Source of the DNA: Planctomycetales bacterium | GTDB taxonomy: Bacteria > Planctomycetota > Planctomycetia > Pirellulales > Pirellulaceae | NCBI GenBank assembly: GCA_020427005.1 | Contig: JAGQOY010000006.1 | Span: 1 to 64,000, forward strand | Length of the DNA stretch: 64,000 nucleotides | Direction of reading: 5' to 3' | In this document: positions 27,816 to 57,450 of the stretch, one piece after another | Layout: each line of letters begins with the position of its first letter | Position numbering within the stretch: the first letter of the stretch is position 1 | Notes under the pieces: generated by a model | Database searches by the model: none | What the model saw: only the letters and a program-made list of their open reading frames with translations | Told to the model about the DNA's origin: nothing | Position numbers and translations under genes: made by a program

Positions 27816-28051
27816 AACATGCTTCGTGCAAGCGAAGCGTATTTTCGCCGGTTATAAAATGAGGTCCTATTCCCAACGCGTTTGGCGGGCGTAAGGAATA
27901 TTCAGTTGACGGTCAAAACGGCCAGCGAAGAGACTACATCTGTCATCGCTTCGCGACTTGCGTAGGGTTCTTCGGCGAACCTCGGACTAACGTCCGAGGC
28001 TAGAGTCTGCCGCTGCTACGCAGCTGAAATCTCAACAGCATTTTAAATTGA

Positions 28052-36745: not shown

Positions 36746-36815
36746 GCTCGACGGTGAAATGGAGATTATAGCTGTTTTCTAAACAGTGGGGCCAGGTTCG
36801 ATTCCTCGTCGAGCT
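36746..36815 (+). tRNA. tRNA-Arg(UCU), atypical
   Basis: The acceptor GCTCGAC/GTCGAGC is perfect. The anticodon arm GCTGT/ACAGT has loop TTTCTAA, anticodon TCT. The D-arm GTGA/TTAT (loop AATGGAGA) is weak and is joined to the acceptor by one base, so U8 is missing. The T-arm loop is TTCGATT, but its stem has a C-C mismatch and shares a base with the acceptor. At 70 nt it is shorter than a normal class I tRNA. Confidence 0.6.
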
Positions 36816-36920
36816 GCTGGGGCTCAGCGCGAACTTTATCAAATTATTCCTAAAGCTTGGATTAGAGCCGTGACCGAAGCAACCTTGGAAAGACGAACTG
36901 AGATCACGGGCCTTAGTCCG

Positions 36921-37505
36921 ATGCTTCAGAGACCAACACTTGTGCTAAACCGCAGTTGGCAGCCGATCAACGTCGCGACGGTTGCGCGGGCGCTGATCTT
37001 GTTGTGGAATGGCTCAGCAAAGGTTGTCGACCCGATCAACTACCAGTTATTCGATTGGAGCGATTGGAGCCGACTCGTTCCAGACCAGGATGAGCCGTTC
37101 GTTCAGTCTGTGCGCCAGAAATTTCGAGTGCCAGAAGTCATCGCGTTAAATCAGATTGACCGCATGCCGACGCAAGCGGTAACGTTCAGCCGACGCAACG
37201 TGTTCAGGCGTGACAAGATGACTTGCCAGTACTGCGGTAAGCATCCCGGAAGTAAGGAATTGACGATTGACCACGTTGTGCCTCGCTCACAGGGCGGTCA
37301 GTCAAGTTGGACGAATTGTGTACTGGCATGCGTTGAATGTAACTCTCGCAAGGCCGGCCGCACGCCGACAGAAGCTGGCATGCGGCTGCGCAATCAGCCG
37401 ACTCGACCAGCCTGGAAGCCGATCTACGCACAGCGCATGACCCGAATCGAAAGCTGGGCGAAGTTTATCAGCGAAGCCTATTGGAATGTGGAATTGGAGT
37501 CGTAG
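36921..37505 (+). CDS. HNH endonuclease
   Basis: The HNH core is CQYCGKHPGSKELTIDHVVP, RSQGGQSSWTNCVLACVECN, SRKAGRTP: two CxxC zinc pairs around a DH-N-type catalytic site. The N-terminal LVLNRSWQPINVATVARALI is the usual start of this HNH subfamily, so ATG 36921 is chosen over an in-frame GTG at 36870; the frame runs back into the tRNA-Arg gene. HNH proteins of this kind accompany tRNA arrays, mobile elements and phages. Here it interrupts the tRNA array, suggesting either a homing-type nuclease or an effector of the locus. DNA or RNA could be its target. Confidence 0.88.
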   Translation: MLQRPTLVLNRSWQPINVATVARALILLWNGSAKVVDPINYQLFDWSDWSRLVPDQDEPFVQSVRQKFRVPEVIALNQIDRMPTQAVTFSRRNVFRRDKMTCQYCGKHPGSKELTIDHVVPRSQGGQSSWTNCVLACVECNSRKAGRTPTEAGMRLRNQPTRPAWKPIYAQRMTRIESWAKFISEAYWNVELES

Positions 37506-37576: not shown

Positions 37577-37646
37577 AGGAATGTTCTCCTGGGAGAGAAA
37601 TCGGTCTCCAAAGCCGATACACAGTGTTCGAATCACTGCATTCCTG
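37577..37646 (+). tRNA. tRNA-Trp(CCA), atypical
   Basis: Perfect seven-pair acceptor AGGAATG/CATTCCT with discriminator G; anticodon arm TCGGT/GCCGA with loop CTCCAAA, anticodon CCA; perfect T-arm CAGTG/CACTG with loop TTCGAAT. The linker TT supplies U8. The D-arm is reduced to a short stem with a four-base loop CTGG, and the total length is only 70 nt. The sequence 37647-37768 after it contains further tRNA-like scraps (a GCGGA/TCCGC hairpin, GTTCGATT, ACGGGTTC) that I cannot fold into a tRNA. Confidence 0.68.
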
Positions 37647-37771
37647 CTTAGCGGATGGTAGCCGTCCGCATATGCAAGCGTTCGATTGATGTTGTTCCGG
37701 CGGCGCAAGCGTCCTGTCCCTTACGGCAGTTGGCTAATTGTGTTCCGTGAACGGGTTCTATCGCAGCATTG

Positions 37772-37921
37772 ATTGGAGTAGCTCAGTGGATAGAGCATCA
37801 GGTGTTGAACTGTCGAGCGGTCCACGTGTTGCAGTCGCGCCAGGCGGCGCCAGACTGCACCCTGTAGGCCGCTCGGTGGAGAACCTGACGGTCACGGGTT
37901 CGAATCCCGTCGACGCAACCA
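37772..37921 (+). ncRNA. tRNA-like RNA with a giant anticodon-arm insertion
   Basis: A canonical D-arm (TA, GCTC, loop AGTGGATA, GAGC), anticodon-stem halves CAGGT (37799-37803) and ACCTG (37883-37887), a perfect T-arm ACGGG/CCCGT with loop TTCGAAT, and a terminal ACCA are all present. Between the anticodon-stem halves lie 79 bases instead of 7. They fold into CGAGCGG/CCGCTCG, then TGCAGTC/GACTGCA, then GCGCC/GGCGC; TCCAC could pair across with GTGGA as a pseudoknot. The normal acceptor positions do not pair (ATTGGAG against CGACGCA), but the displaced TTGATTG (37769-37775) pairs with CAACCAA (37916-37922) with one mismatch. It cannot decode mRNA and is probably the RNA partner of the slipin downstream. 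Confidence 0.8.
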
Positions 37922-38311
37922 AGTTGGTTGAAAACCAACCTGACCCCGGGCGCAACTGCGTCCACCTAGAAGCTGGCGGGCAACGCTTGTTTGGCTCGAT
38001 CGGCGGTTGTCGGATGAATAAACGAATCGGAGCATACATGAGTTTGCGAAAGCAGCTCGTGTTTGTGACGTGAAGTAAAGGATTTCGTCGGCAGCAGCAC
38101 TGGGCATCGCCTTGCAGAATCAGGAGCAAGCGGGAAAACGGTAGCGGTTCGTGTTCGCGGACTAAGCAATGAAAAGCAAAGACCAACGGGTCTCAGTTCC
38201 AGTTGCCATCGAAGCGAATAACAACGTTACTAGCCGACCTGCGGAAACATTCTCCGCGAATGCCATGTGTGATCGGCGAACAACGCGTTGCCTTAAGGCG
38301 TTTTGTAAAAG

Positions 38312-38467
<156 letters not shown>

Positions 38468-38483: not shown

Positions 38484-39584
38484 ATGTTCAAGAGAATCAA
38501 GATCCGCAGTTACGAAGTTGGCTTGAAGTTCCGCGACGGCGAATTCAAGAGCCTCATACCTGCTGGTACGCACTGGCTGATTGATCCATTGGGCAAAGTT
38601 CGCATCCGCGTGGTATCCAAGCGAGAGCCATGGCTAACGGACGAACAGCTGGATGTAATCGTCAAGACTGGTGCTTTGACCGGTAAGGTTGAAGTACTTG
38701 ACCTGAAGGACAACCAGCGCGCGTTGGTCTGGATCGATGGTCGGTTCGCTCGAATTCTCGGCGCAGGCTTGTACGCCTACTGGACTGGTGTCCGCGAAGT
38801 GCGTGTCGAGATCGTTGATGCACGGCAGGTACGACTCGAGCACGAGGAATTGAAGTCGATTGTTCGCGCCTCGGAAGCAGCCCGCCTGCTCGATGTGTGC
38901 AAAGTCGATCGCAATTGTGTGGGTGTCCTGTATGTTGACGGCCAATACGTCAACCAATTGGAGCCAGGTTTGTACGCTTTCTGGAGGGATATCGCAGATT
39001 CGCGTGTAGTCGAGCTTGACCTGCGTGAGACGCAGATCGACGTCAGTGGTCAAGAAATCATGACGGCTGACAAGGTCACGTTGCGCATGAACGCTTTGGC
39101 CACCTACCTGATCAAGGACCCTCGTCGTGCCGTGAGTGCATCCAGCGATGTTCGTCAGTCGCTGTATCGCGAGGTGCAATTGGCACTGCGAGCCGTAGTT
39201 GGTGCCCGTGAGCTCGACAGCTTCCTGACTGGCAAGGACGATGTGGCTCAGGAACTTGCGCAAAACGTGCGTGGGCAGGCTAACGCATTGGGTTTGGAAG
39301 TGTTATCGATAGGTATCAAGGATGTGATTCTTCCAGGCGACATGAAGGACCTGATGAACAAGGTAACGGAAGCCAAGAAGGCCGCCGAAGCCAACTTGAT
39401 CTCACGTCGTGAGGAAACGGCCGCCATGCGCAGCCAAGCCAACACTGCCAAGTTGTTGGCAGACAACCCAACGTTGATGCGTCTTCGCGAGCTGGAAGTA
39501 CTCGAGAAGATCGGCGCAGCCGGCAAGTTGAACATTGTTCTTGGCGAAAAGGGATTAGCCGACCGAGTCGTCAACTTGCTTTAA
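38484..39584 (+). CDS. Slipin (SPFH/Band-7 protein)
   Basis: The SPFH domain covers about residues 185-330 ([60 protein letters not shown]). It is followed by the typical Ala/Glu-rich helix ([20 protein letters not shown]). Before it are two similar beta units ([20 protein letters not shown] and [20 protein letters not shown]). There is no N-terminal membrane segment, unlike stomatins, so it is probably soluble and oligomeric. Band-7 proteins of this form have been proposed as scaffolds in RNA-repair modules with a tRNA-like partner RNA. It follows the tRNA-like RNA and the heptad repeat and ends 15 bases before a terminator. Confidence 0.9.
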
Positions 39585-50293: not shown

Positions 50294-50445
50294 CAACGTC
50301 TACCGCAGTAAACAGCGGACACCCAAACAGCCCAGGAAATCGAAACCGCAGGCTGTTCGTATCGAACCACTACCTGGCTGCTATTGGATGTGCGGTCACA
50401 TCCCAGCCAGTGAAAACGATTGTTCATGTTCAAGGAATGTTAGTT

Positions 50446-50889
50446 ATGAAAATCAGCCAACAATTTGCAGGCAGTTACCTGAAAGCAGCAGACCTACCAC
50501 AGCCCAGAGTATTTGCGGTTCAATCCGTTGTGATGGGCAAGATGCCAGAGGGTGATGAAAAGCCCGTTTTGAATTTTGCAGGTTCAGACCAGGCACTAGT
50601 TTTGAACAAAACGAACGCAACCATTCTGGCCGAGCTGTGGGGCGATGAAACCACAGCCTGGCATGGGCAGCTAGTGGAACTGTACGCGACTACTACGAGT
50701 TTCGGTGGTCGCATGGTTCCATGCATTCGAGTTAGGGCAGCCCAGGTGCAAACTGCTGCACGGCAGCCAGCACCAGTGCCCCAGCCATCAGCACCGCAGC
50801 CAACAGTGCCGCAGCCTACTGCCGCACCTGCCCAGCAACAGCTGCCGCTACAACCAGCACCTGCACCCGATTATCCGCTGGATGCATAG
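50446..50889 (+). CDS. Phage-type conserved protein, 147 aa
   Basis: The first 95 residues (FAGSYLKAADLPQPRVFAVQ, KPVLNFAGSDQALVLNKTNA, TILAELWGDETTAWHGQLVE, GRMVPCIRV) match a small protein common in phages and mobile elements near replication genes; I know of no assigned activity. The last 45 residues are a Pro/Gln/Ala repeat tail. ATG 50446 is internal to a longer frame from 50410 but starts the conserved part. Confidence 0.75.
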   Translation: MKISQQFAGSYLKAADLPQPRVFAVQSVVMGKMPEGDEKPVLNFAGSDQALVLNKTNATILAELWGDETTAWHGQLVELYATTTSFGGRMVPCIRVRAAQVQTAARQPAPVPQPSAPQPTVPQPTAAPAQQQLPLQPAPAPDYPLDA

Positions 50890-50892
50890 GCC

Positions 50893-51069
50893 ATGGATAT
50901 TATCGAACAGCTGGTGCTGTTTGTCGGATGGTATGCAGACCGAATGCAGCTGCCGTTGCAGCAAGCCATTCATGTGCTGCATGCCATCTACGACAGCCGT
51001 AAAGATGCTCTGCTGCCATTGGTAGAGCAATTCAAACAGGAACAGCAAGGCAGCAGCCATGCTGACTGA
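50893..51069 (+). CDS. Small helical protein, 58 aa
   Basis: MDIIEQLVLFVGWYADRMQL, PLQQAIHVLHAIYDSRKDAL, then LPLVEQFKQEQQ: an all-helical amphipathic protein. It begins three bases after the stop of the preceding gene. Composition and spacing argue for a real gene. Function unknown. Confidence 0.6.
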   Translation: MDIIEQLVLFVGWYADRMQLPLQQAIHVLHAIYDSRKDALLPLVEQFKQEQQGSSHAD

Positions 51070-51148
51070 TCCCCATTCAATGCAGCAGCCCTGGCAAGTT
51101 TTGCGACTACGGCCAGGGCTGCTGATGTTCAAGGATGTTACCGAATGA
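51059..51148 (+). CDS. Possible micro-protein, 29 aa
   Basis: MLTDPHSMQQPWQVLRLRPG, LLMFKDVTE: it starts 11 bases inside the end of the preceding gene and its stop overlaps the ATG of the primase gene (ATGA). The coupling pattern is suggestive, but the frame is short and could be chance. Confidence 0.35.
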   Translation: MLTDPHSMQQPWQVLRLRPGLLMFKDVTE

Positions 51149-53487
51149 ATTATACCCAAACTGTTACGAACTACCTAACGCATGGTTTCAACTGCCTGCC
51201 TTTGCAAGTGGATGGTAGCAAGAAACCCATCGGCAGCTGGTCCCATCTGCAAGACCGGCAACTGTCCGAACATGAAATCAAAACCTACTGGGATTCACCC
51301 ACACCGGCTGGCATCGGCATACTGGCCGGCCAGAGTAGCCACAACCTGCACATCATCGACTTTGATGCAGAGGCTGAGATTTACTTTCAGCGGTTCTGGG
51401 GTTGCCTGATGGCAAACTACCCTGAGCTGGTGAATAAGGTGCTGGCAGTTGCGACACCCAGACCAGGCAGGCAAGTATGGTTTCGGCAAGAATCAAAACC
51501 GCCGAAGTCTCAGCAGTTGGCACTGACTGAACCGCAGCCCACTGGTGAAACTGATGCAGATGGGAATGAAATACTGCTGCCAGTTATTCTGGTCGAAACC
51601 AGAGGCAGTGGCGGTTATGCAGTGGCAGTAGGTAGCCCAGCTGCGGTTCATCCAACTGGAGAACCTTACCAGTTGATTCATGGTAGCTATGAACAGCTTC
51701 CTATCATCACCGATGCAGAGGCAGACATTCTGCTGGACATTTGCAGAGGCTACACTCGCTACCAGTTGGATAACGTACAGCGGCAGCTAGGTGAACGCTA
51801 CGCAGGTGAACCCAGACCAGGTGATGTTTACAACCAGCATGCAGACATTCGGCAGCTGCTGTTAGATGCTGGCTGGAAATCACACCACTGGGAAGCAGAT
51901 ACCGAGTATCTAACGCGACCAGGTAAAGCCGTTTCAGATGGATACAGTGCAACGCTGGGCTATGTTCGCAGCGAAGACGATAAACCGCTGCTGATTGTGC
52001 ATTCGGCTGCGGCTGCACCATTCACAAAGGGCAGCTGTTACGATGCCTTTGCTGTATCGGCACTGCTTAACCATGATGGCGATTTCTCGCAGGCAGCGGC
52101 TGCGGCCAAAATTGAATACGCCCAGCAGGTGAACGCTGCCCAGGTAGGTTTTGCACAGAATCAGAGAATCGAAACCGAGCAGCAGTATCAGCCATTCCCA
52201 GTGGAGCTGCTGCCCGATGTGGTGCAGCAGTATGTGGCGGAACATTCCGCTGCTATCGGTATTGATGCTGCATTCATTGCAGTGCCGATGCTGCCCTGCC
52301 TAGCTGCACTGATTGGCAATAGTCGGCAGGCATTCATCAAACGGGGTTTCACACAGCCCAGCATCATCTGGGCGGTTACGATTGGCGATGTAAGCAGAGG
52401 CAAGACACCAGGCTGGATGGCAGGCACTGCCCCCGCTGATGCCATTGAACATAGATTACACCAATGGATGCACCAGACCAAGCAGACCTACCAGCAGCAG
52501 CTGCAAGAATTTGAACTGGGGAAACGCGAATCGAAACCGGCAAAGCCTGATACCAGCATGCAGCTGGTGGTGAATGATTTCACGATGGAAACGCTGATCG
52601 ACATTCACCAGCATAACAGTAAGCTGCTGTTGAGCATTGATGAGCTGGCCGCATGGGTCCGCAGCATGGACCAGTACCGAGCTGGCAAAGGCCGCGATTG
52701 TGAGAACTGGCTAAGCATCTACAACGGCGGCAAAATCCAAGTAAACCGCAAGACCGATGGCTACCGAGTCTACCTACCGCAGACCTGCATCAGTGTATGC
52801 GGAACCATTCAACCCGCAGTTGCCCAGGAAACCATCTTTACCGAACGCTTCATTGCGAATGGTTTTGCGGCCAGGATTCTATCAGCTTACCCACCCGCTG
52901 AGATTGTGAGCTGGTCCGATTCGGAAGTACCCCAGCAGGTAGATGATGCCATGATGCAACTGGGGCAGCGATTGTATGCCTTGGCTGGTGAACCACATGG
53001 CAGCAGCACCCGGCCGAAATTGTTACCGCTGGATGATGCAGCCCTGGTACTGTTCAAGCAGTGGATGTACGACGCAGCAGCCCATGTAGCAGAAATGCCC
53101 ATCGACCTGCAGAACGCATGGCTGAAACTGCGACCAATTGCAGCCAGATTTGCACTGGTGCATTCAGTAGTTCGGCAACTGGTACAACATCCTGATGGAA
53201 ACGCTGTGCGACCTATCGACCAGCACAGCATGCAGGCTGGCATTCAGCTGGCCTGGTGGTTCGGCCATGAGATAGAACGCAACTACAACGTAGGCAGCAG
53301 CCCAGATGACTTACAAAGCCATTTCAAATGGATACTGGCCAAGCATCCAATTGGGATTGATGCTCGAGGATTGCTAACAGGCAGATGGTCAATCAAGACC
53401 GCAGCAGAGGCCAGACAAGTGATTCAGCAACTGCTTGAACAGGGTTTCGGCAGGCTGGATGGTTCCATCTTCATTCCCCACAAATAA
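51145..53487 (+). CDS. Prim-Pol / DUF3987 replication protein
   Basis: Residues about 8-215 are a bifunctional primase-polymerase domain (GFNCLPLQVDGSKKPIGSWS, HIIDFDAEAEI with the metal-binding Asp pair, VETRGSGGYAVAVGSPAAVH, PTGEPYQ). Residues about 350-640 are DUF3987, a helicase-like domain with a P-loop-like GDVSRGKT at about 413-420, DELAAWVRSMDQY and a TERFIANGFAARIL segment. It probably primes and helps unwind the element DNA. It precedes the polymerase gene by 171 bases that hold an origin-like repeat region. Confidence 0.87.
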   Translation: MNYTQTVTNYLTHGFNCLPLQVDGSKKPIGSWSHLQDRQLSEHEIKTYWDSPTPAGIGILAGQSSHNLHIIDFDAEAEIYFQRFWGCLMANYPELVNKVLAVATPRPGRQVWFRQESKPPKSQQLALTEPQPTGETDADGNEILLPVILVETRGSGGYAVAVGSPAAVHPTGEPYQLIHGSYEQLPIITDAEADILLDICRGYTRYQLDNVQRQLGERYAGEPRPGDVYNQHADIRQLLLDAGWKSHHWEADTEYLTRPGKAVSDGYSATLGYVRSEDDKPLLIVHSAAAAPFTKGSCYDAFAVSALLNHDGDFSQAAAAAKIEYAQQVNAAQVGFAQNQRIETEQQYQPFPVELLPDVVQQYVAEHSAAIGIDAAFIAVPMLPCLAALIGNSRQAFIKRGFTQPSIIWAVTIGDVSRGKTPGWMAGTAPADAIEHRLHQWMHQTKQTYQQQLQEFELGKRESKPAKPDTSMQLVVNDFTMETLIDIHQHNSKLLLSIDELAAWVRSMDQYRAGKGRDCENWLSIYNGGKIQVNRKTDGYRVYLPQTCISVCGTIQPAVAQETIFTERFIANGFAARILSAYPPAEIVSWSDSEVPQQVDDAMMQLGQRLYALAGEPHGSSTRPKLLPLDDAALVLFKQWMYDAAAHVAEMPIDLQNAWLKLRPIAARFALVHSVVRQLVQHPDGNAVRPIDQHSMQAGIQLAWWFGHEIERNYNVGSSPDDLQSHFKWILAKHPIGIDARGLLTGRWSIKTAAEARQVIQQLLEQGFGRLDGSIFIPHK

Positions 53488-53490
53488 CAG

Positions 53491-53642
53491 TCTCAGCACC
53501 TCAGCAAATCTGCACCTCAGCAACAGTTGAGACATTACAGGACAGTATCTCGCAGGCATTTTGGCAGGCTAGGTAGACTACGATGCAAAGTCTCAATATG
53601 TCCTAACGCTTGCAGAGTTGCTAAGCTGCTGAGGTGCTGAGA
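53491..53642. repeat. Candidate replication origin: iterons and inverted repeats
   Basis: TCTCAGCACCTCAGCA (53491-53506) and its exact complement (53627-53642) bound the gap between the Prim-Pol and polymerase genes. The 10-mer CACCTCAGCA occurs twice directly (near 53497 and 53513) and once inverted. Inside, TTGAGAC/GTCTCAA (53527-53533, 53590-53596) and AGGACA/TGTCCT (53539-53544, 53599-53604) are further inverted pairs. Repeats of this density beside replication genes are typical of an origin; a regulatory role is the alternative. Confidence 0.65.
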
Positions 53643-53658
53643 ATAGGATTTTGCACCC

Positions 53659-55809
53659 ATGGAAACGACTATCGGAAATCAGGACTACACCTGGCAGCAC
53701 TGGGATGGGCAGCAGTTGGGCAAGTATGTAGCCATCGACACCGAAACCACATTGATAACTGGGCACCGCATACCGCAGCTATGCCTGGCAAGTTGTAGCG
53801 ATGGGCAGCAGCATTTCATTATCCACCCAGACCAGCTGGGCAGTTTCCTGAACCAGCATCTGCCCAGTGGTAGCCATTTAATCATGCACAATGCTGCATT
53901 CGATTTTTGGGTTTTGGATAAGCACCTGGCGAGCAGCGGTGGCGATGATGCACGCAGTTGGATGTGGTCAACAGTGGATGGTGGTAGGTTTCACGATACG
54001 ATGCTGCTGCATGCACTGGTAACGCTAGCCCAGAGCGATGATGACACCATGCACAGCCTAGCAGAGCTGGCCAGCAAGCTGCTGGGGATTCAGTTGGACA
54101 AGGATTCCTACCGAACTCGATATGCTGAAACCATCGGCCAGGACTGGCAGCAGTTGGATGTGGGTTTCTTTCAGTACGCAGTTACTGATGCCATCGTTAC
54201 CTGGCAGTTATTCTGCAAACTGACGCACCAGGCCAGCAGCATCTGCCAGCATCACAATCTGAACCGCAGCTACGGGTTTCTGACTGAACGGTTACAAGTG
54301 CAGGCAGCTATCAGCCTGGCCGCGATTACTCGCAATGGAATGCATGTAGACCTGGACCGAGCTGCCCAGTTGCAACAGCGGATAGATGCGGGAATCAAGC
54401 AAGAAGTGGAAACCATGCAGCAGATTGATGCAGGGCTATGGCACACCTACGTTAAAAATGGATTGTTCAAAACGAACAAGGAAACTGGCCTGCCCAAGAT
54501 GAACCAGAAACGGCTGCTAGAACATCTGCAACGCATTGCTGATGAGCACCAGTTGAAAGTGCCATTGACGGCTACGGGGCAGATTTCAAGCAGTGTGAAC
54601 GAATGCTGGACCCAGTACACCGAGTTGCACCCTCTGATAGCTGCCTATTGCACTTACACCGAGCTAACCAAACTGCGAACATTCTTTGCCGCTTTGGATA
54701 AGCCTACCATTCACCCCACATACCGAACCCTAGTTAGGTCAGGCCGCACCAGTTGCAGCGGTCCGAACATTCAGCAGCTGCCTGCACGCAGCCCCATACG
54801 CGATGCCATTACAGCAAAGCCAGGGCATCTGCTTTTCATCATCGACTACAACGCATTGGAGCTGCGAACGCTGGCCGCAGTATGTTATGAGCGAATCGGA
54901 TTCAGCAGACTGCGGGATGTCCTAATAGATGGCACTGATCCGCACAGCTACGCTGCTGCCATGTTTGCTGGTATCGACTTGGCTGCATTTGAGCAGCTAC
55001 CGAATAAGAAACAGCTACGGCAGCAGGCTAAGGTATTCAATTTTGGATTGCCTGCAGGTTTTGGTGCTGCTGCCCTGGTGGATCATGCCAAGTTTGCCTA
55101 CGGGGTAACGATAACGCAGGCAGAGGCTGAACAATTCATTGAACAGCTAACCAGGCAAGTCTACCCAGAGTTGCAGCTGTATCTGGCCGAAGATACTGCC
55201 AGCATCGTAGCCCAGATTTTGCAGGCTGATGTAGTGCAGATTCGAGCTACCTGGCCGCAGCAGTACCACATGGGGCTGCTACGCAGATTGCTGGCCGGCC
55301 ACCAATGCAAACGCGATGGAACACCCTACCAGCAACGCACGATTGATACTGCTTGGCAGCAGCTGGAAACCCTTTGTAGAAACCCACACCTGCTGCCATT
55401 CATTCAGCGGGGTGATACTTCCGAATCATCACCGCTACGCAGATTGTTTAATTCGACTGTGAGCACAACCACTGGCCGCATGCGAGGTGGCGTACCATTC
55501 ACCGCAGCCAGGAATGCACCATTCCAAGGACTGGCCGCAGATGGCTGCAAGTCTGCCATGTGGAACCTAACCAGGGCTGGTTACCGAGTAGTGGCATTCA
55601 TTCACGATGAGTTTATTATCGAATTGAACAAACTGGACGACATAGACCGAGCATCGGCAGAGATACCGAGTATCTGCCAGCAGAGCATGCGGCCATTCGT
55701 TCCTGGCATACCAGTTCCAGTTGAATTTGCCCTAACCCACCGCTGGGATAAGGCAGCCCATGCAGTTTGGAGCGAACAGGGGCAGTTGCTGGAATGGGCT
55801 ACTGCTTGA
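53659..55809 (+). CDS. Family A DNA polymerase with 3'-5' exonuclease
   Basis: The N-terminal exonuclease has IDTETTL (residues 26-32) and LIMHNAAFDFWVLD (near 75). The polymerase has SGRTSCSGPNIQQLPARSPI, motif A FIIDYNALELRTLA (near 394), motif B KKQLRQQAKVFNFGLPAGFG (near 450) and motif C AFIHDEFIIEL (near 646). At 716 residues it is phage-like: no 5' nuclease domain. All catalytic Asp and Lys/Tyr-region residues appear present. It should copy the element, possibly with the Prim-Pol as primer source. Confidence 0.93.
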   Translation: METTIGNQDYTWQHWDGQQLGKYVAIDTETTLITGHRIPQLCLASCSDGQQHFIIHPDQLGSFLNQHLPSGSHLIMHNAAFDFWVLDKHLASSGGDDARSWMWSTVDGGRFHDTMLLHALVTLAQSDDDTMHSLAELASKLLGIQLDKDSYRTRYAETIGQDWQQLDVGFFQYAVTDAIVTWQLFCKLTHQASSICQHHNLNRSYGFLTERLQVQAAISLAAITRNGMHVDLDRAAQLQQRIDAGIKQEVETMQQIDAGLWHTYVKNGLFKTNKETGLPKMNQKRLLEHLQRIADEHQLKVPLTATGQISSSVNECWTQYTELHPLIAAYCTYTELTKLRTFFAALDKPTIHPTYRTLVRSGRTSCSGPNIQQLPARSPIRDAITAKPGHLLFIIDYNALELRTLAAVCYERIGFSRLRDVLIDGTDPHSYAAAMFAGIDLAAFEQLPNKKQLRQQAKVFNFGLPAGFGAAALVDHAKFAYGVTITQAEAEQFIEQLTRQVYPELQLYLAEDTASIVAQILQADVVQIRATWPQQYHMGLLRRLLAGHQCKRDGTPYQQRTIDTAWQQLETLCRNPHLLPFIQRGDTSESSPLRRLFNSTVSTTTGRMRGGVPFTAARNAPFQGLAADGCKSAMWNLTRAGYRVVAFIHDEFIIELNKLDDIDRASAEIPSICQQSMRPFVPGIPVPVEFALTHRWDKAAHAVWSEQGQLLEWATA

Positions 55810-55861
55810 AATGCAATCGCGGCTTGATTATCATTCGGATAACTTATCAGAGAGATATACA

Positions 55862-56083
55862 ATGGCTAAGCGGAAACATCAGAAAAAGCCGATGACGATT
55901 CAGCAGCAGCTGCTTGCCCACATTCAAGCATCAGGCATGACACAGAGACAAATTGCCGAGCTGGCAGGAATGCCTGAGAGCAATGTAAGCAGTTTTATAT
56001 CTGGCAAACGGGGCATTAGCTTGAAATCCCTGAACAGCATATGCATTGGTTTGGAATTGGATCTGATTAAGAGGGGCAGCTAA
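55862..56083 (+). CDS. XRE-family helix-turn-helix regulator
   Basis: 73 residues: a basic start (MAKRKHQKKPM), then the HTH LLAHIQASGMTQRQIAELAG, MPESNVSSFISGKRGISLKS. It abuts the integrase gene with stop and start adjacent (TAAATG), so the two are co-expressed. It is a candidate repressor controlling excision and replication. The ATG 55862 begins the family match; an open frame upstream overlaps the polymerase gene. Confidence 0.85.
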   Translation: MAKRKHQKKPMTIQQQLLAHIQASGMTQRQIAELAGMPESNVSSFISGKRGISLKSLNSICIGLELDLIKRGS

Positions 56084-57409
56084 ATGGCAACTGTTCGCAG
56101 ACGCGAAAACGGTTCAATTGAAATCCGATTCATTGACCACAACGGCAAACGCAAAAGCCTATACCCCGGCCAGGTGGCACTGCGGGATGGTGAAAGCATG
56201 GCAGCCAAAGTAGAGCACATCGTTAGCCGCAAGGTGCAGGCATCCAGCCCTGATGTAGCTGTTGCCCATTGGATTGCTGGGTTATCCGATAAGCTGCACA
56301 GCAAGCTGGTGAAACTCGACCTAGTACCAGCAAGGGAACCATCGGAACCGCAGGCAGAACTGGCCGCAGCAGATGCAGTGCAGATGCCTACCATTAAGCA
56401 TTGGACTAATAGTTACATCGAACAGCACCCAGGCAAGGAACGCACCATTCTGAATCTGAAACAGTCCGCGAAAAACCTTTGCACATATTTCAAGCCAGAT
56501 AAGGCACTGGATTCATTCACTGCTGGTGATGCTGAGCGGTTCCGCAAGTGGCTGCAAGGCAAAGGGCTAGCCGAAAACACAGTCAGATGCAGGATTCGCA
56601 GGGCTAAGCAGTTTTTCAACGCAGCCATGAAAGATGAACTGTTAGAGCGGAACCCATTCGCGGCTGAGAAATCAGTTGTGGGCGGCAACGATAGCCGGCT
56701 GTTCATGGTTCCTGCGGAATGGATTGAAACCCTTATCAGGAAAGCCCCCTGCGAGGATTGGCGAATTATCCTAGCCTTTGCCCGCTACGCTGGGATGCGA
56801 GCACATGAATGCTGCATGCAACGCTGGGAAGATATCGACCTGGCAAATAATCGCATGGTGATACGCAGCAACAAAACCCCACCTATCCGCAGCTGCCCGA
56901 TATTCCCAGAGCTGCGGCCACACCTTTTGCGAGCTAGGGAAATGGCACCAACCGGGGCTGAGTATGTGCAGACCCGATACAGCCCTGATAGCAACCTGAG
57001 AACTACACTTCTGAAAATCATCACCGCTGCTAAGCTAGTGCCCTGGCCGCGATTAATGCAGAATCTACGAGCAACCAGAGAAACTGAGCTGTTAGCCAAG
57101 TACCCAGCCAAGGATGTGACCAGTTGGTTAGGCAACAGCCCATCAGTTGCTACCAAGCATTATGCAATGGCTACTCAGGAATCGTTCATCAGAGCAACGC
57201 AAGATGGGGCAAACCTGCCAGGAATAACTTGTGGCGTAGATTCCAAAAGTACCCCAAAAAGTACCCCACACATTGCAGGAATTGATGAGAAATGGCAGGA
57301 CACGAAAAAAGCCATAGTGAAAAACCCCAGGGAAATCTGGCATTTTCTCGCTATGGCTTTGGCTGACTCGCAGCCTAGTACCCCCAACAGGACTCGAACC
57401 TGTGACTAG
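56084..57409 (+). CDS. Tyrosine recombinase (integrase) of the element
   Basis: Catalytic residues: Arg239 in AGMRAHECC, Arg329 in NLRATRETEL (Asn327 where many enzymes have His), Asn351 in WLGNS where His or Trp is usual, and Tyr360 in TKHYAM. The SAM-like core-binding domain is at about 110-200 (KHWTNSYIEQHPGKERTILN). The last codons cross the att core and end inside the antisense of tRNA-Arg (PSTPNRTRTCD), so the C-terminus in this form comes from host sequence. In the excised circle the same frame would continue 55 codons into 46942-47109. It integrates the element at the tRNA. Confidence 0.93.
   Translation: MATVRRRENGSIEIRFIDHNGKRKSLYPGQVALRDGESMAAKVEHIVSRKVQASSPDVAVAHWIAGLSDKLHSKLVKLDLVPAREPSEPQAELAAADAVQMPTIKHWTNSYIEQHPGKERTILNLKQSAKNLCTYFKPDKALDSFTAGDAERFRKWLQGKGLAENTVRCRIRRAKQFFNAAMKDELLERNPFAAEKSVVGGNDSRLFMVPAEWIETLIRKAPCEDWRIILAFARYAGMRAHECCMQRWEDIDLANNRMVIRSNKTPPIRSCPIFPELRPHLLRAREMAPTGAEYVQTRYSPDSNLRTTLLKIITAAKLVPWPRLMQNLRATRETELLAKYPAKDVTSWLGNSPSVATKHYAMATQESFIRATQDGANLPGITCGVDSKSTPKSTPHIAGIDEKWQDTKKAIVKNPREIWHFLAMALADSQPSTPNRTRTCD
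57371..57394 (+). other. Right attachment site of the element
   Basis: Partner of 46918-46941, one mismatch in 24. It covers the last bases of the integrase frame and the 3' end of tRNA-Arg, including the acceptor and part of the T-arm, so integration keeps the tRNA whole. Confidence 0.92.
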
Positions 57410-57450
57410 GCTTTAGGAAAGCCTTGTTATATCCACTTAACTATGGGGGC
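57379..57450 (-). tRNA. tRNA-Arg(CCU)
   Basis: A complete cloverleaf on the minus strand: acceptor GCCCCCA/TGGGGGT (first pair G-T), linker TA, D-arm GTTA/TAAC, anticodon arm AGGCT/AGCCT with loop TTCCTAA (anticodon CCT), T-arm ACAGG/CCTGT with loop TTCGAGT, discriminator A. CCA is not encoded. Its 3' end is the element's integration target. In contrast to the 36-38 kb array, this tRNA is fully canonical. Confidence 0.97.

What the first reader, a model, noticed from the sequence alone, without database searches (positions are those of the whole stretch)
37769..37945. tRNA-like RNA with its anticodon loop replaced by a 79-base structured domain
D-arm, T-arm and terminal ACCA are canonical, but the anticodon stem CAGGT/ACCTG opens into three stacked helices (CGAGCGG/CCGCTCG, TGCAGTC/GACTGCA, GCGCC/GGCGC) and a possible pseudoknot (TCCAC with GTGGA). 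The acceptor positions do not pair, while a displaced TTGATTG/CAACCAA helix can. The insert is too small for a group I intron. Such an RNA cannot decode; it could mimic a cleaved or damaged tRNA. A hairpin follows at 37922-37940.
Basis: partly seen in the sequence, partly recalled or inferred. Interest (0 to 1): 0.9.

Follow-up and report, generated by a model that had tools for sequence, protein, structure and literature searches.

The report
tRNA-mimic RNA paired with slipin
The odd "tRNA" is not a decoding tRNA but one domain of a roughly 630-base structured RNA that lies just before a slipin gene in many bacteria, apparently as part of a tRNA-repair system; in this species alone its unused anticodon loop has been replaced by a long hairpin.

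Summary
In detail: D-arm, anticodon stem and T-arm are canonical and the anticodon loop is 79-81 nt instead of 7. The boundaries and acceptor reading do not. The RNA runs from about 37676 to 38304: a 5' hairpin domain, the tRNA-like body, hairpins, and a ~330-nt 3' domain closed by a long helix, ending just before a slipin (SPFH/Band_7) gene. A covariance model finds it in 63 of 397 genomes of the order; 61 of the 74 closest slipin loci with enough upstream sequence carry it, across several phyla. Covariation is strong over 5 and over 30 sequences. Across 84 homologues the tRNA elbow is conserved, but 31 anticodons occur, U33 is not kept and only the inner ~3 acceptor pairs form, so it is a non-decoding tRNA mimic. 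The 79-nt insert is unique to this genome. Rfam 15 has no such family. In Proteobacteria and one Firmicute the same slipin sits with RtcR, RtcB or RlaP, which points to RNA repair. As I recall, Burroughs & Aravind (2016) noted a "novel tRNA-like molecule" cognate to Band-7 proteins in RNA-repair systems; that paper could not be opened. I therefore call this a new, large variant of that kind. Its function is inferred.

The parts
37577..37647 (+). tRNA-Trp(CCA), last ordinary tRNA of a small array just upstream
   Evidence: ARAGORN; same order in G008, G009, G012, G013
37676..38304 (+). whole structured RNA with embedded tRNA mimic (ends inferred from conservation, closing helix and U-run)
37678..37777 (+). 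5' domain: long irregular hairpin (conserved GTTCCGGCGGCGC 37694-37706 ... GTGTTCCGTGAACGGGTTCT) lying between an upstream GCGTT strand and U8 of the tRNA body
   Evidence: covarying helices
37779..37917 (+). tRNA-mimic domain (U8-A9, D-arm, anticodon arm, T-arm, residual acceptor 3' strand)
   Evidence: parsed set of 84 homologues
37781..37796 (+). D-arm
37798..37888 (+). anticodon arm: stem TCAGG/CCTGA enclosing an 81-nt loop (79 nt if CAGGT/ACCTG is taken)
   Evidence: the stem covaries in homologues (helix 8)
37804..37882 (+). species-specific 79-nt hairpin insert replacing the 7-nt anticodon loop
   Evidence: no copy elsewhere in this genome or the genus; absent from all other homologues
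37894..37910 (+). T-arm ACGGG-TTCGAAT-CCCGT
37918..37921 (+). ACCA (NCCA at this place in only 18 of 84 homologues)
37923..37939 (+). 3' hairpin GTTGG/CCAAC
   Evidence: helix 9
37948..37963 (+). hairpin GGGCGC-AACT-GCGTCC
   Evidence: helix 13
37968..38304 (+). 3' domain closed by a long helix (about 37975-38000 with 38268-38300), U-run after it
   Evidence: helices 14, 20
38484..39584 (+). slipin-family protein: three beta repeats, SPFH domain, long helix, no transmembrane segment
   Evidence: Band_7 2e-32; model pLDDT 82; Foldseek; hydropathy

Best explanation
The finding is the tRNA-mimic module of a ~0.55 kb structured non-coding RNA (~0.63 kb here because of the insert), encoded directly upstream of, and functionally paired with, a soluble slipin/SPFH protein of an RNA-repair system. 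Shown: conserved fold, covariation, conserved tRNA elbow (D-loop GG, TTCRA T-loop, Levitt-type pair), unconstrained anticodon, acceptor stem reduced to about 3 bp, and slipin linkage. Inferred: the RNA is made as a separate transcript, binds the SPFH ring or cage, and uses its elbow to dock where a tRNA would in the repair complex (slipin with RtcB/RlaP), as scaffold, sensor or regulator of repair of broken tRNAs. Because the anticodon loop is not read or bound, it can drift in sequence and in this species could take a 79-nt hairpin without destroying the RNA.
For: Covariation over 5 sequences and over 30 (68.2% of cells paired, slid 35-42%; covariation 0.232, slid 0.071-0.107; 0 of 500 shuffles). 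Model R1 gives full-length hits of at least 62 bits in 63 of 397 genomes of the order. Slipin directly downstream on the same strand in 41 of 45, and an R1 hit of at least 40 bits upstream in 61 of 74 related slipin loci. 84-sequence parse: U8A9 95%, GG in D-loop 99%, T-stem 100%, anticodon stem 98-100% with 4-5 pair types, 31 anticodons in 74 seven-base loops, U33 52/74, acceptor pairs 98/82/74/54% (inner) falling to 32-40% (outer). RNA-repair link: related slipins beside rtcR (Citrobacter, Burkholderia, Photobacterium), RtcB (Burkholderia, Photobacterium) and RlaP (Citrobacter, Burkholderia, Subdoligranulum), with tRNA-like elements before slipin in Burkholderia and Photobacterium. P. aeruginosa PaFlo8 lies in the rtc locus (PMC13086221). 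In Anabaena the repressor TrcR, which studies link to the 26-tRNA operon, also represses a slipin (42-fold up in its absence) and rtcB (77-fold) (PMC10272220). This genome has two RtcB matches and two adjacent RlaP matches.
Against: No transcript, protein binding or phenotype was tested. In planctomycetes RtcB and RlaP are not next to the RNA. The RNA could be a leader of the slipin mRNA rather than separate. Homology of the Proteobacterial tRNA-like elements to the planctomycete RNA rests on position and tRNA-likeness, not on the 5' or 3' domains; in E. coli only a T-arm-like piece was seen. R1 also scores ordinary tRNAs up to about 57-61 bits, so hits of 40-58 bits in tRNA arrays are weaker evidence.
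Confidence: 0.62

Rival explanations
1. A decaying tRNA gene or pseudogene left in a shrinking tRNA array, with a random insertion.
For: It lies at the end of a tRNA array, has no complete acceptor stem, and carries an insert that breaks the anticodon loop.
Against: Anticodon, D and T stems are 98-100% paired in 84 homologues with compensatory changes; about 550 nt of flanking structure covaries; linkage to slipin persists across several phyla. Decay is possible only for the anticodon loop of this copy.
Confidence: 0.05
2. A bacterial Y RNA (YrlA type) tethering Ro60.
For: YrlA mimics tRNA; G009 and G013 have Ro60 (TROVE) a few kb downstream; true YrlA lies near many planctomycete Ro60 genes.
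Against: Here the order is D - anticodon - T, whereas the YrlA copies read here are T then D; the YrlA basal-stem motif is absent from the window; Rfam YrlA does not match; G009 has separate YrlA copies besides this RNA; no Ro60 was found in this genome.
Confidence: 0.07
3. A cis-acting leader of the slipin mRNA that senses tRNA or a repair factor and controls slipin expression.
For: Always upstream on the same strand, usually 350-560 nt from RNA end to slipin start; a U-run follows the closing helix just before the ribosome-binding region.
Against: Very long and elaborate for a leader; at the end of arrays it could be co-transcribed with tRNAs; gaps of 1.2-1.6 kb to slipin occur in G161 and G084.
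Confidence: 0.18
4. A spliced tRNA precursor: the insert and perhaps the 5' domain are removed to give a working tRNA.
For: The sequence is otherwise tRNA-like with ACCA.
Against: Homologues without insert have random anticodons and mostly no acceptor stem or CCA; the insert is too small for a group I or II intron and no such Rfam family matches.
Confidence: 0.03
5. A decoy or resistant mimic for anticodon nucleases: the tRNA body competes for such enzymes, and in this species the target loop has been removed.
For: tRNA arrays and RNA repair are both seen as answers to tRNA cleavage (PMC7824862); a competitive-inhibitor role was proposed for YrlA (PMC7790460).
Against: The loop varies without any common nuclease site; no direct evidence.
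Confidence: 0.1

Closest known systems
tRNA-like RNA cognate to SPFH/Band-7 proteins in RNA-repair systems (Burroughs & Aravind 2016, doi 10.1093/nar/gkw722; recalled from the abstract, paper not held)
   Same: tRNA-like RNA encoded beside a Band-7 protein of the RtcB/RlaP/RtcR repair network
   Different: Here the mimic is one domain of a ~0.55 kb RNA with covarying 5' and 3' domains, sits in planctomycete tRNA arrays, and in this species has a 79-nt anticodon-arm insert; whether that paper described these domains could not be checked
YrlA (bacterial Y RNA, RF02553)
   Same: Non-coding tRNA mimic with elbow, partner protein nearby, tied to RNA repair
   Different: YrlA is permuted (T before D), about 115-150 nt, Ro60-linked; both exist separately in G009
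GOLLD RNA
   Same: Large ornate RNA near tRNA islands, sometimes with tRNAs in its linker (PMC12286853)
   Different: No Rfam GOLLD match; phage/prophage-linked; its tRNAs are described as tRNAs; no slipin partner noted
tmRNA
   Same: tRNA-like domain inside a longer structured RNA
   Different: Full D-arm and anticodon arm, internal tRNA body, no tag peptide called; only a 24-bit sub-threshold match in the tRNA clan
Vault particle (MVP with vault RNA and TEP1)
   Same: The slipin model has tandem beta repeats + SPFH + helix; Foldseek to MVP E 4e-11 over ~400 alignment columns; an RNA partner; Ro60-like protein in some loci
   Different: Three repeats instead of nine; stomatin scores better; no sequence-level MVP family; the analogy is structural only

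Membership tests
Decoding tRNA | Seven-base-pair acceptor stem | tested here: not met
   Only inner ~3 pairs form across homologues, outer pairs at 32-40%; not formed locally in the window
Decoding tRNA | Conserved anticodon at an orthologous locus, U33 | tested here: not met
   31 triplets in 74 loops; U33 52/74; 81-nt loop in the window
Decoding tRNA | D/T elbow | tested here: met
   GG in D-loop 99%, TTCRA loop 100%, 15-48 covarying
YrlA (RF02553) | Model match and permuted order with Ro60-binding basal stem | tested here: not met
   No match; basal-stem motif absent from the window; order D-AC-T
YrlA (RF02553) | Ro60 binding | not testable with these tools
   Ro60 near the RNA in G009 and G013 only; none found in this genome
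tmRNA | RF00023 above gathering score, tag reading frame | tested here: not met
   24.2 bits vs 47; ARAGORN calls no tmRNA in the window
GOLLD / ROOL / OLE | Match to the Rfam model | tested here: not met
   No hit at E<=0.5 or 0.1 in 23 homologue loci nor in the window
Group I intron in tRNA | Group I core | tested here: not met
   No Rfam intron match; insert 79 nt; homologues lack it
Band-7-cognate tRNA-like RNA of RNA-repair systems | tRNA-like RNA directly beside a Band_7/slipin gene | tested here: met
   41/45 neighbourhoods; 61/74 slipin loci
Band-7-cognate tRNA-like RNA of RNA-repair systems | Genes of the RNA-repair network in the same operon | tested here: inconclusive
   Not adjacent in the window; RtcB and RlaP elsewhere in the genome; adjacent in Burkholderia, Photobacterium and Citrobacter
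Slipin / SPFH | Band_7 domain | tested here: met
   PF01145 2e-32
Membrane slipin (stomatin type) | N-terminal membrane segment | tested here: not met
   Highest 19-residue hydropathy 1.22; none above 1.48 in 14 homologues

The most novel reading that the evidence does not exclude
A previously undescribed class of large bacterial RNA that packs into or onto a soluble vault-like SPFH cage, presents a tRNA elbow as a docking handle for repair of broken tRNAs, and travels with tRNA arrays; in this lineage it has gained an extra domain through its free anticodon arm.
Probability: 0.25. Interest if true: 0.95.

Novelty: new variant of a known kind. Interest (0 to 1): 0.76.

Why it matters
It turns one oddity into an RNA family that is widespread, covarying and absent from Rfam, with a fixed protein partner, so it can be tested directly. 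It shows natural tRNA mimics in which the elbow is kept while anticodon and acceptor are free. It links tRNA arrays, slipins and RNA repair, and the vault-like architecture of the slipin raises a testable question about RNA-containing protein cages in bacteria. Such RNAs are likely to be misannotated: ARAGORN calls the body an ordinary tRNA in about 17 of the 45 neighbourhoods examined, with many different anticodons.

Tried and rejected
Own-genome search for the RNA and for the insert: single copies only. Y RNA idea, raised by Ro60 near two homologues: rejected by topology, missing basal-stem motif and separate YrlA genes. First model acceptor pairing (GCGTT/GACGC, one compensatory change): may hold in this clade only; other clades form a short local GGU/ACC stem, so I do not insist on it. 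Defence-system library: no strong hit to the slipin (RmrT, E 8e-4); the upstream HNH protein hits many HNH families, uninformative. Phage records hold no slipin of this kind at E<=1e-20. Papers by Chen 2014, Wang 2018, Sim & Wolin 2018 and Burroughs & Aravind 2016 were not held.

Full report
WHAT IS THERE. The window is part of contig C494 of a 7.87 Mb genome assembly (96.5% complete) whose slipin relatives are mostly planctomycetes, many of them Pirellulales. Rfam tRNA matches 37778-37911 with 32.8 bits and an 80-nt unmatched stretch in the anticodon loop; ARAGORN misses it but finds tRNA-Ser, -Ser, -Arg and -Trp just upstream. The insert folds as one long hairpin. There is no other copy of the RNA or of the insert in the genome.

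HOMOLOGUES. A DNA search of 60 relatives found the element after tRNA-Trp in four species of the same genus. All have ordinary 7-base anticodon loops, all different: CTAATAA, CTACTGA, CTAGAAA, CTTGGGA. The strand before the D-arm pairs with an upstream strand to make a long 5' hairpin, not an acceptor stem. Counting 60 pairs on five sequences gives 96.7% paired cells and nine pairs with changes on both sides; partners slid by 1-3 columns give 32-41% and 0-3 pairs.

BREADTH. Model R1 searched in 397 genomes of the order gives full-length hits of at least 62 bits in 63 genomes (my count of the listing); ordinary tRNAs reach about 57-61 bits over shorter spans. In 45 neighbourhoods the only gene family that recurs in most is a slipin, directly downstream on the same strand in 41; of the four without it, G008 is cut by a contig end. 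A protein search with slipins in named genomes returned 80 loci. R1 hits of at least 40 bits lie upstream in 61 of the 74 with about 500 nt or more upstream, including Desulfobacterota (one of them an isolate, Desulfogranum japonicum), Acidobacteriota and, more weakly, Lentisphaeria; Verrucomicrobia (L264, L267) reach only about 30 bits.

FULL EXTENT. Conservation continues to a point just before slipin. Unbiased pair scoring finds long-range covarying helices closing a ~330-nt 3' domain, and single-sequence folds show the same closing helix, including in the window. On 30 sequences and 162 pairs taken from one member's fold, 68.2% of cells pair (slid 35-42%), 481 cells carry double changes (slid 211-277) and the covariation score is 0.232 (slid 0.071-0.107), with 0 of 500 shuffles reaching the score. 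Several peripheral helices of that single-sequence fold pair in only 40-60% of cells, so the detailed 3' structure is provisional. Rfam 15 scans of 23 homologue loci show tRNA hits and weak chance matches only.

WHAT IS CONSTRAINED. In 84 parsed homologues the tRNA core is kept: U8-A9, A14, G18G19, the 15-48 pair (G-C 56, A-U 14), the T-loop and all three arms. The anticodon is free (31 triplets), U33 is not kept, the acceptor stem fades after about three pairs to chance level, and NCCA follows in 18. This is a tRNA elbow mimic. The window's 81-nt loop is the only exception to loops of 6-8 nt. The insert is therefore a private addition to an arm whose tip has no visible constraint; whether it has its own role cannot be judged from one sequence, and an assembly error cannot be excluded without reads.

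THE PARTNER. The slipin has a Band_7 domain. An AlphaFold2 model (pLDDT 82, pTM 0.60) shows three tandem beta repeats, SPFH and a long helix, with no membrane segment in 14 homologues. Foldseek ranks stomatin first over about 230 columns and finds major vault protein at E 4e-11 over about 400 columns, so the chain architecture resembles MVP. This is a resemblance of fold, not family membership.

PATHWAY. More distant orthologues (33-38% identity) lie beside rtcR in Citrobacter, Burkholderia and Photobacterium, with RtcB in Burkholderia and Photobacterium and RlaP in Citrobacter, Burkholderia and Subdoligranulum. Burkholderia and Photobacterium have tRNA-like bodies before slipin; E. coli and Citrobacter show only a T-arm-like piece (read by eye). 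This slipin locus is in 1624 of 5426 E. coli genomes. RtcR is activated by 5' tRNA fragments (PMC7790460). P. aeruginosa PaFlo8 is in the rtc locus (PMC13086221). In Anabaena, loss of the repressor TrcR raises a slipin 42-fold and RtcB 77-fold, and that study links TrcR to the 26-tRNA operon (PMC10272220). The genome of the window has two RtcB matches and two adjacent RlaP matches. The most likely role is thus in tRNA repair or translational stress; the exact mechanism (scaffold, sensor, decoy or leader) is inferred.

NOVELTY. From memory, Burroughs & Aravind 2016 mention SPFH/Band-7 modules with a cognate novel tRNA-like molecule; the paper was not available, so how much of this was described is unknown. 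The large covarying 5' and 3' domains, the size, the link to tRNA arrays, the constraint pattern and the insert are documented here, and Rfam holds no such family. I therefore rate it a new variant of a known kind, with a smaller chance that it is a new class.

Noticed in passing
L076, L077, L078, L080, L081, L084, L086, L087, L089: In relatives Ro60 (TROVE) genes lie near YrlA RNAs and, in most of these loci, at the 3' end of large tRNA arrays (up to 19 tRNAs in the stretch seen).
   Followed up: partly
L085:10200-10339: A YrlA copy in G005 carries an insertion in its acceptor-side loop, a parallel case of a tRNA mimic tolerating an insert.
   Followed up: no
window 38314-38465: Tandem heptamer array (GGAGTAA, then GCAGTAA/GGCAGTA variants) between the RNA's 3' end and slipin; a similar run follows the RNA in G008.
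   Followed up: no
window 36786-37505: HNH endonuclease gene inside the tRNA array; related HNH genes sit in the array upstream of the RNA in nine of 45 genomes.
   Followed up: partly
L053 (G009): One locus holds this RNA, slipin, a methyltransferase, a YrlA-type motif and Ro60 in order, with a second YrlA inside the tRNA array.
   Followed up: partly
L276:6645-6750 and L277:6626-6767: tRNA-like bodies before slipin in Burkholderia (anticodon arm with a 3-nt loop by eye) and Photobacterium (two in tandem), in RtcR/RtcB loci.
   Followed up: partly
window 27980-28025: Acido-Lenti-1 RNA, 46 bits.
   Followed up: no
window 50410-57450: Looks like an integrated element: primase-like and DNA-polymerase-like ORFs and an integrase-like ORF ending at tRNA-Arg(CCT) (named by eye).
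   Followed up: no
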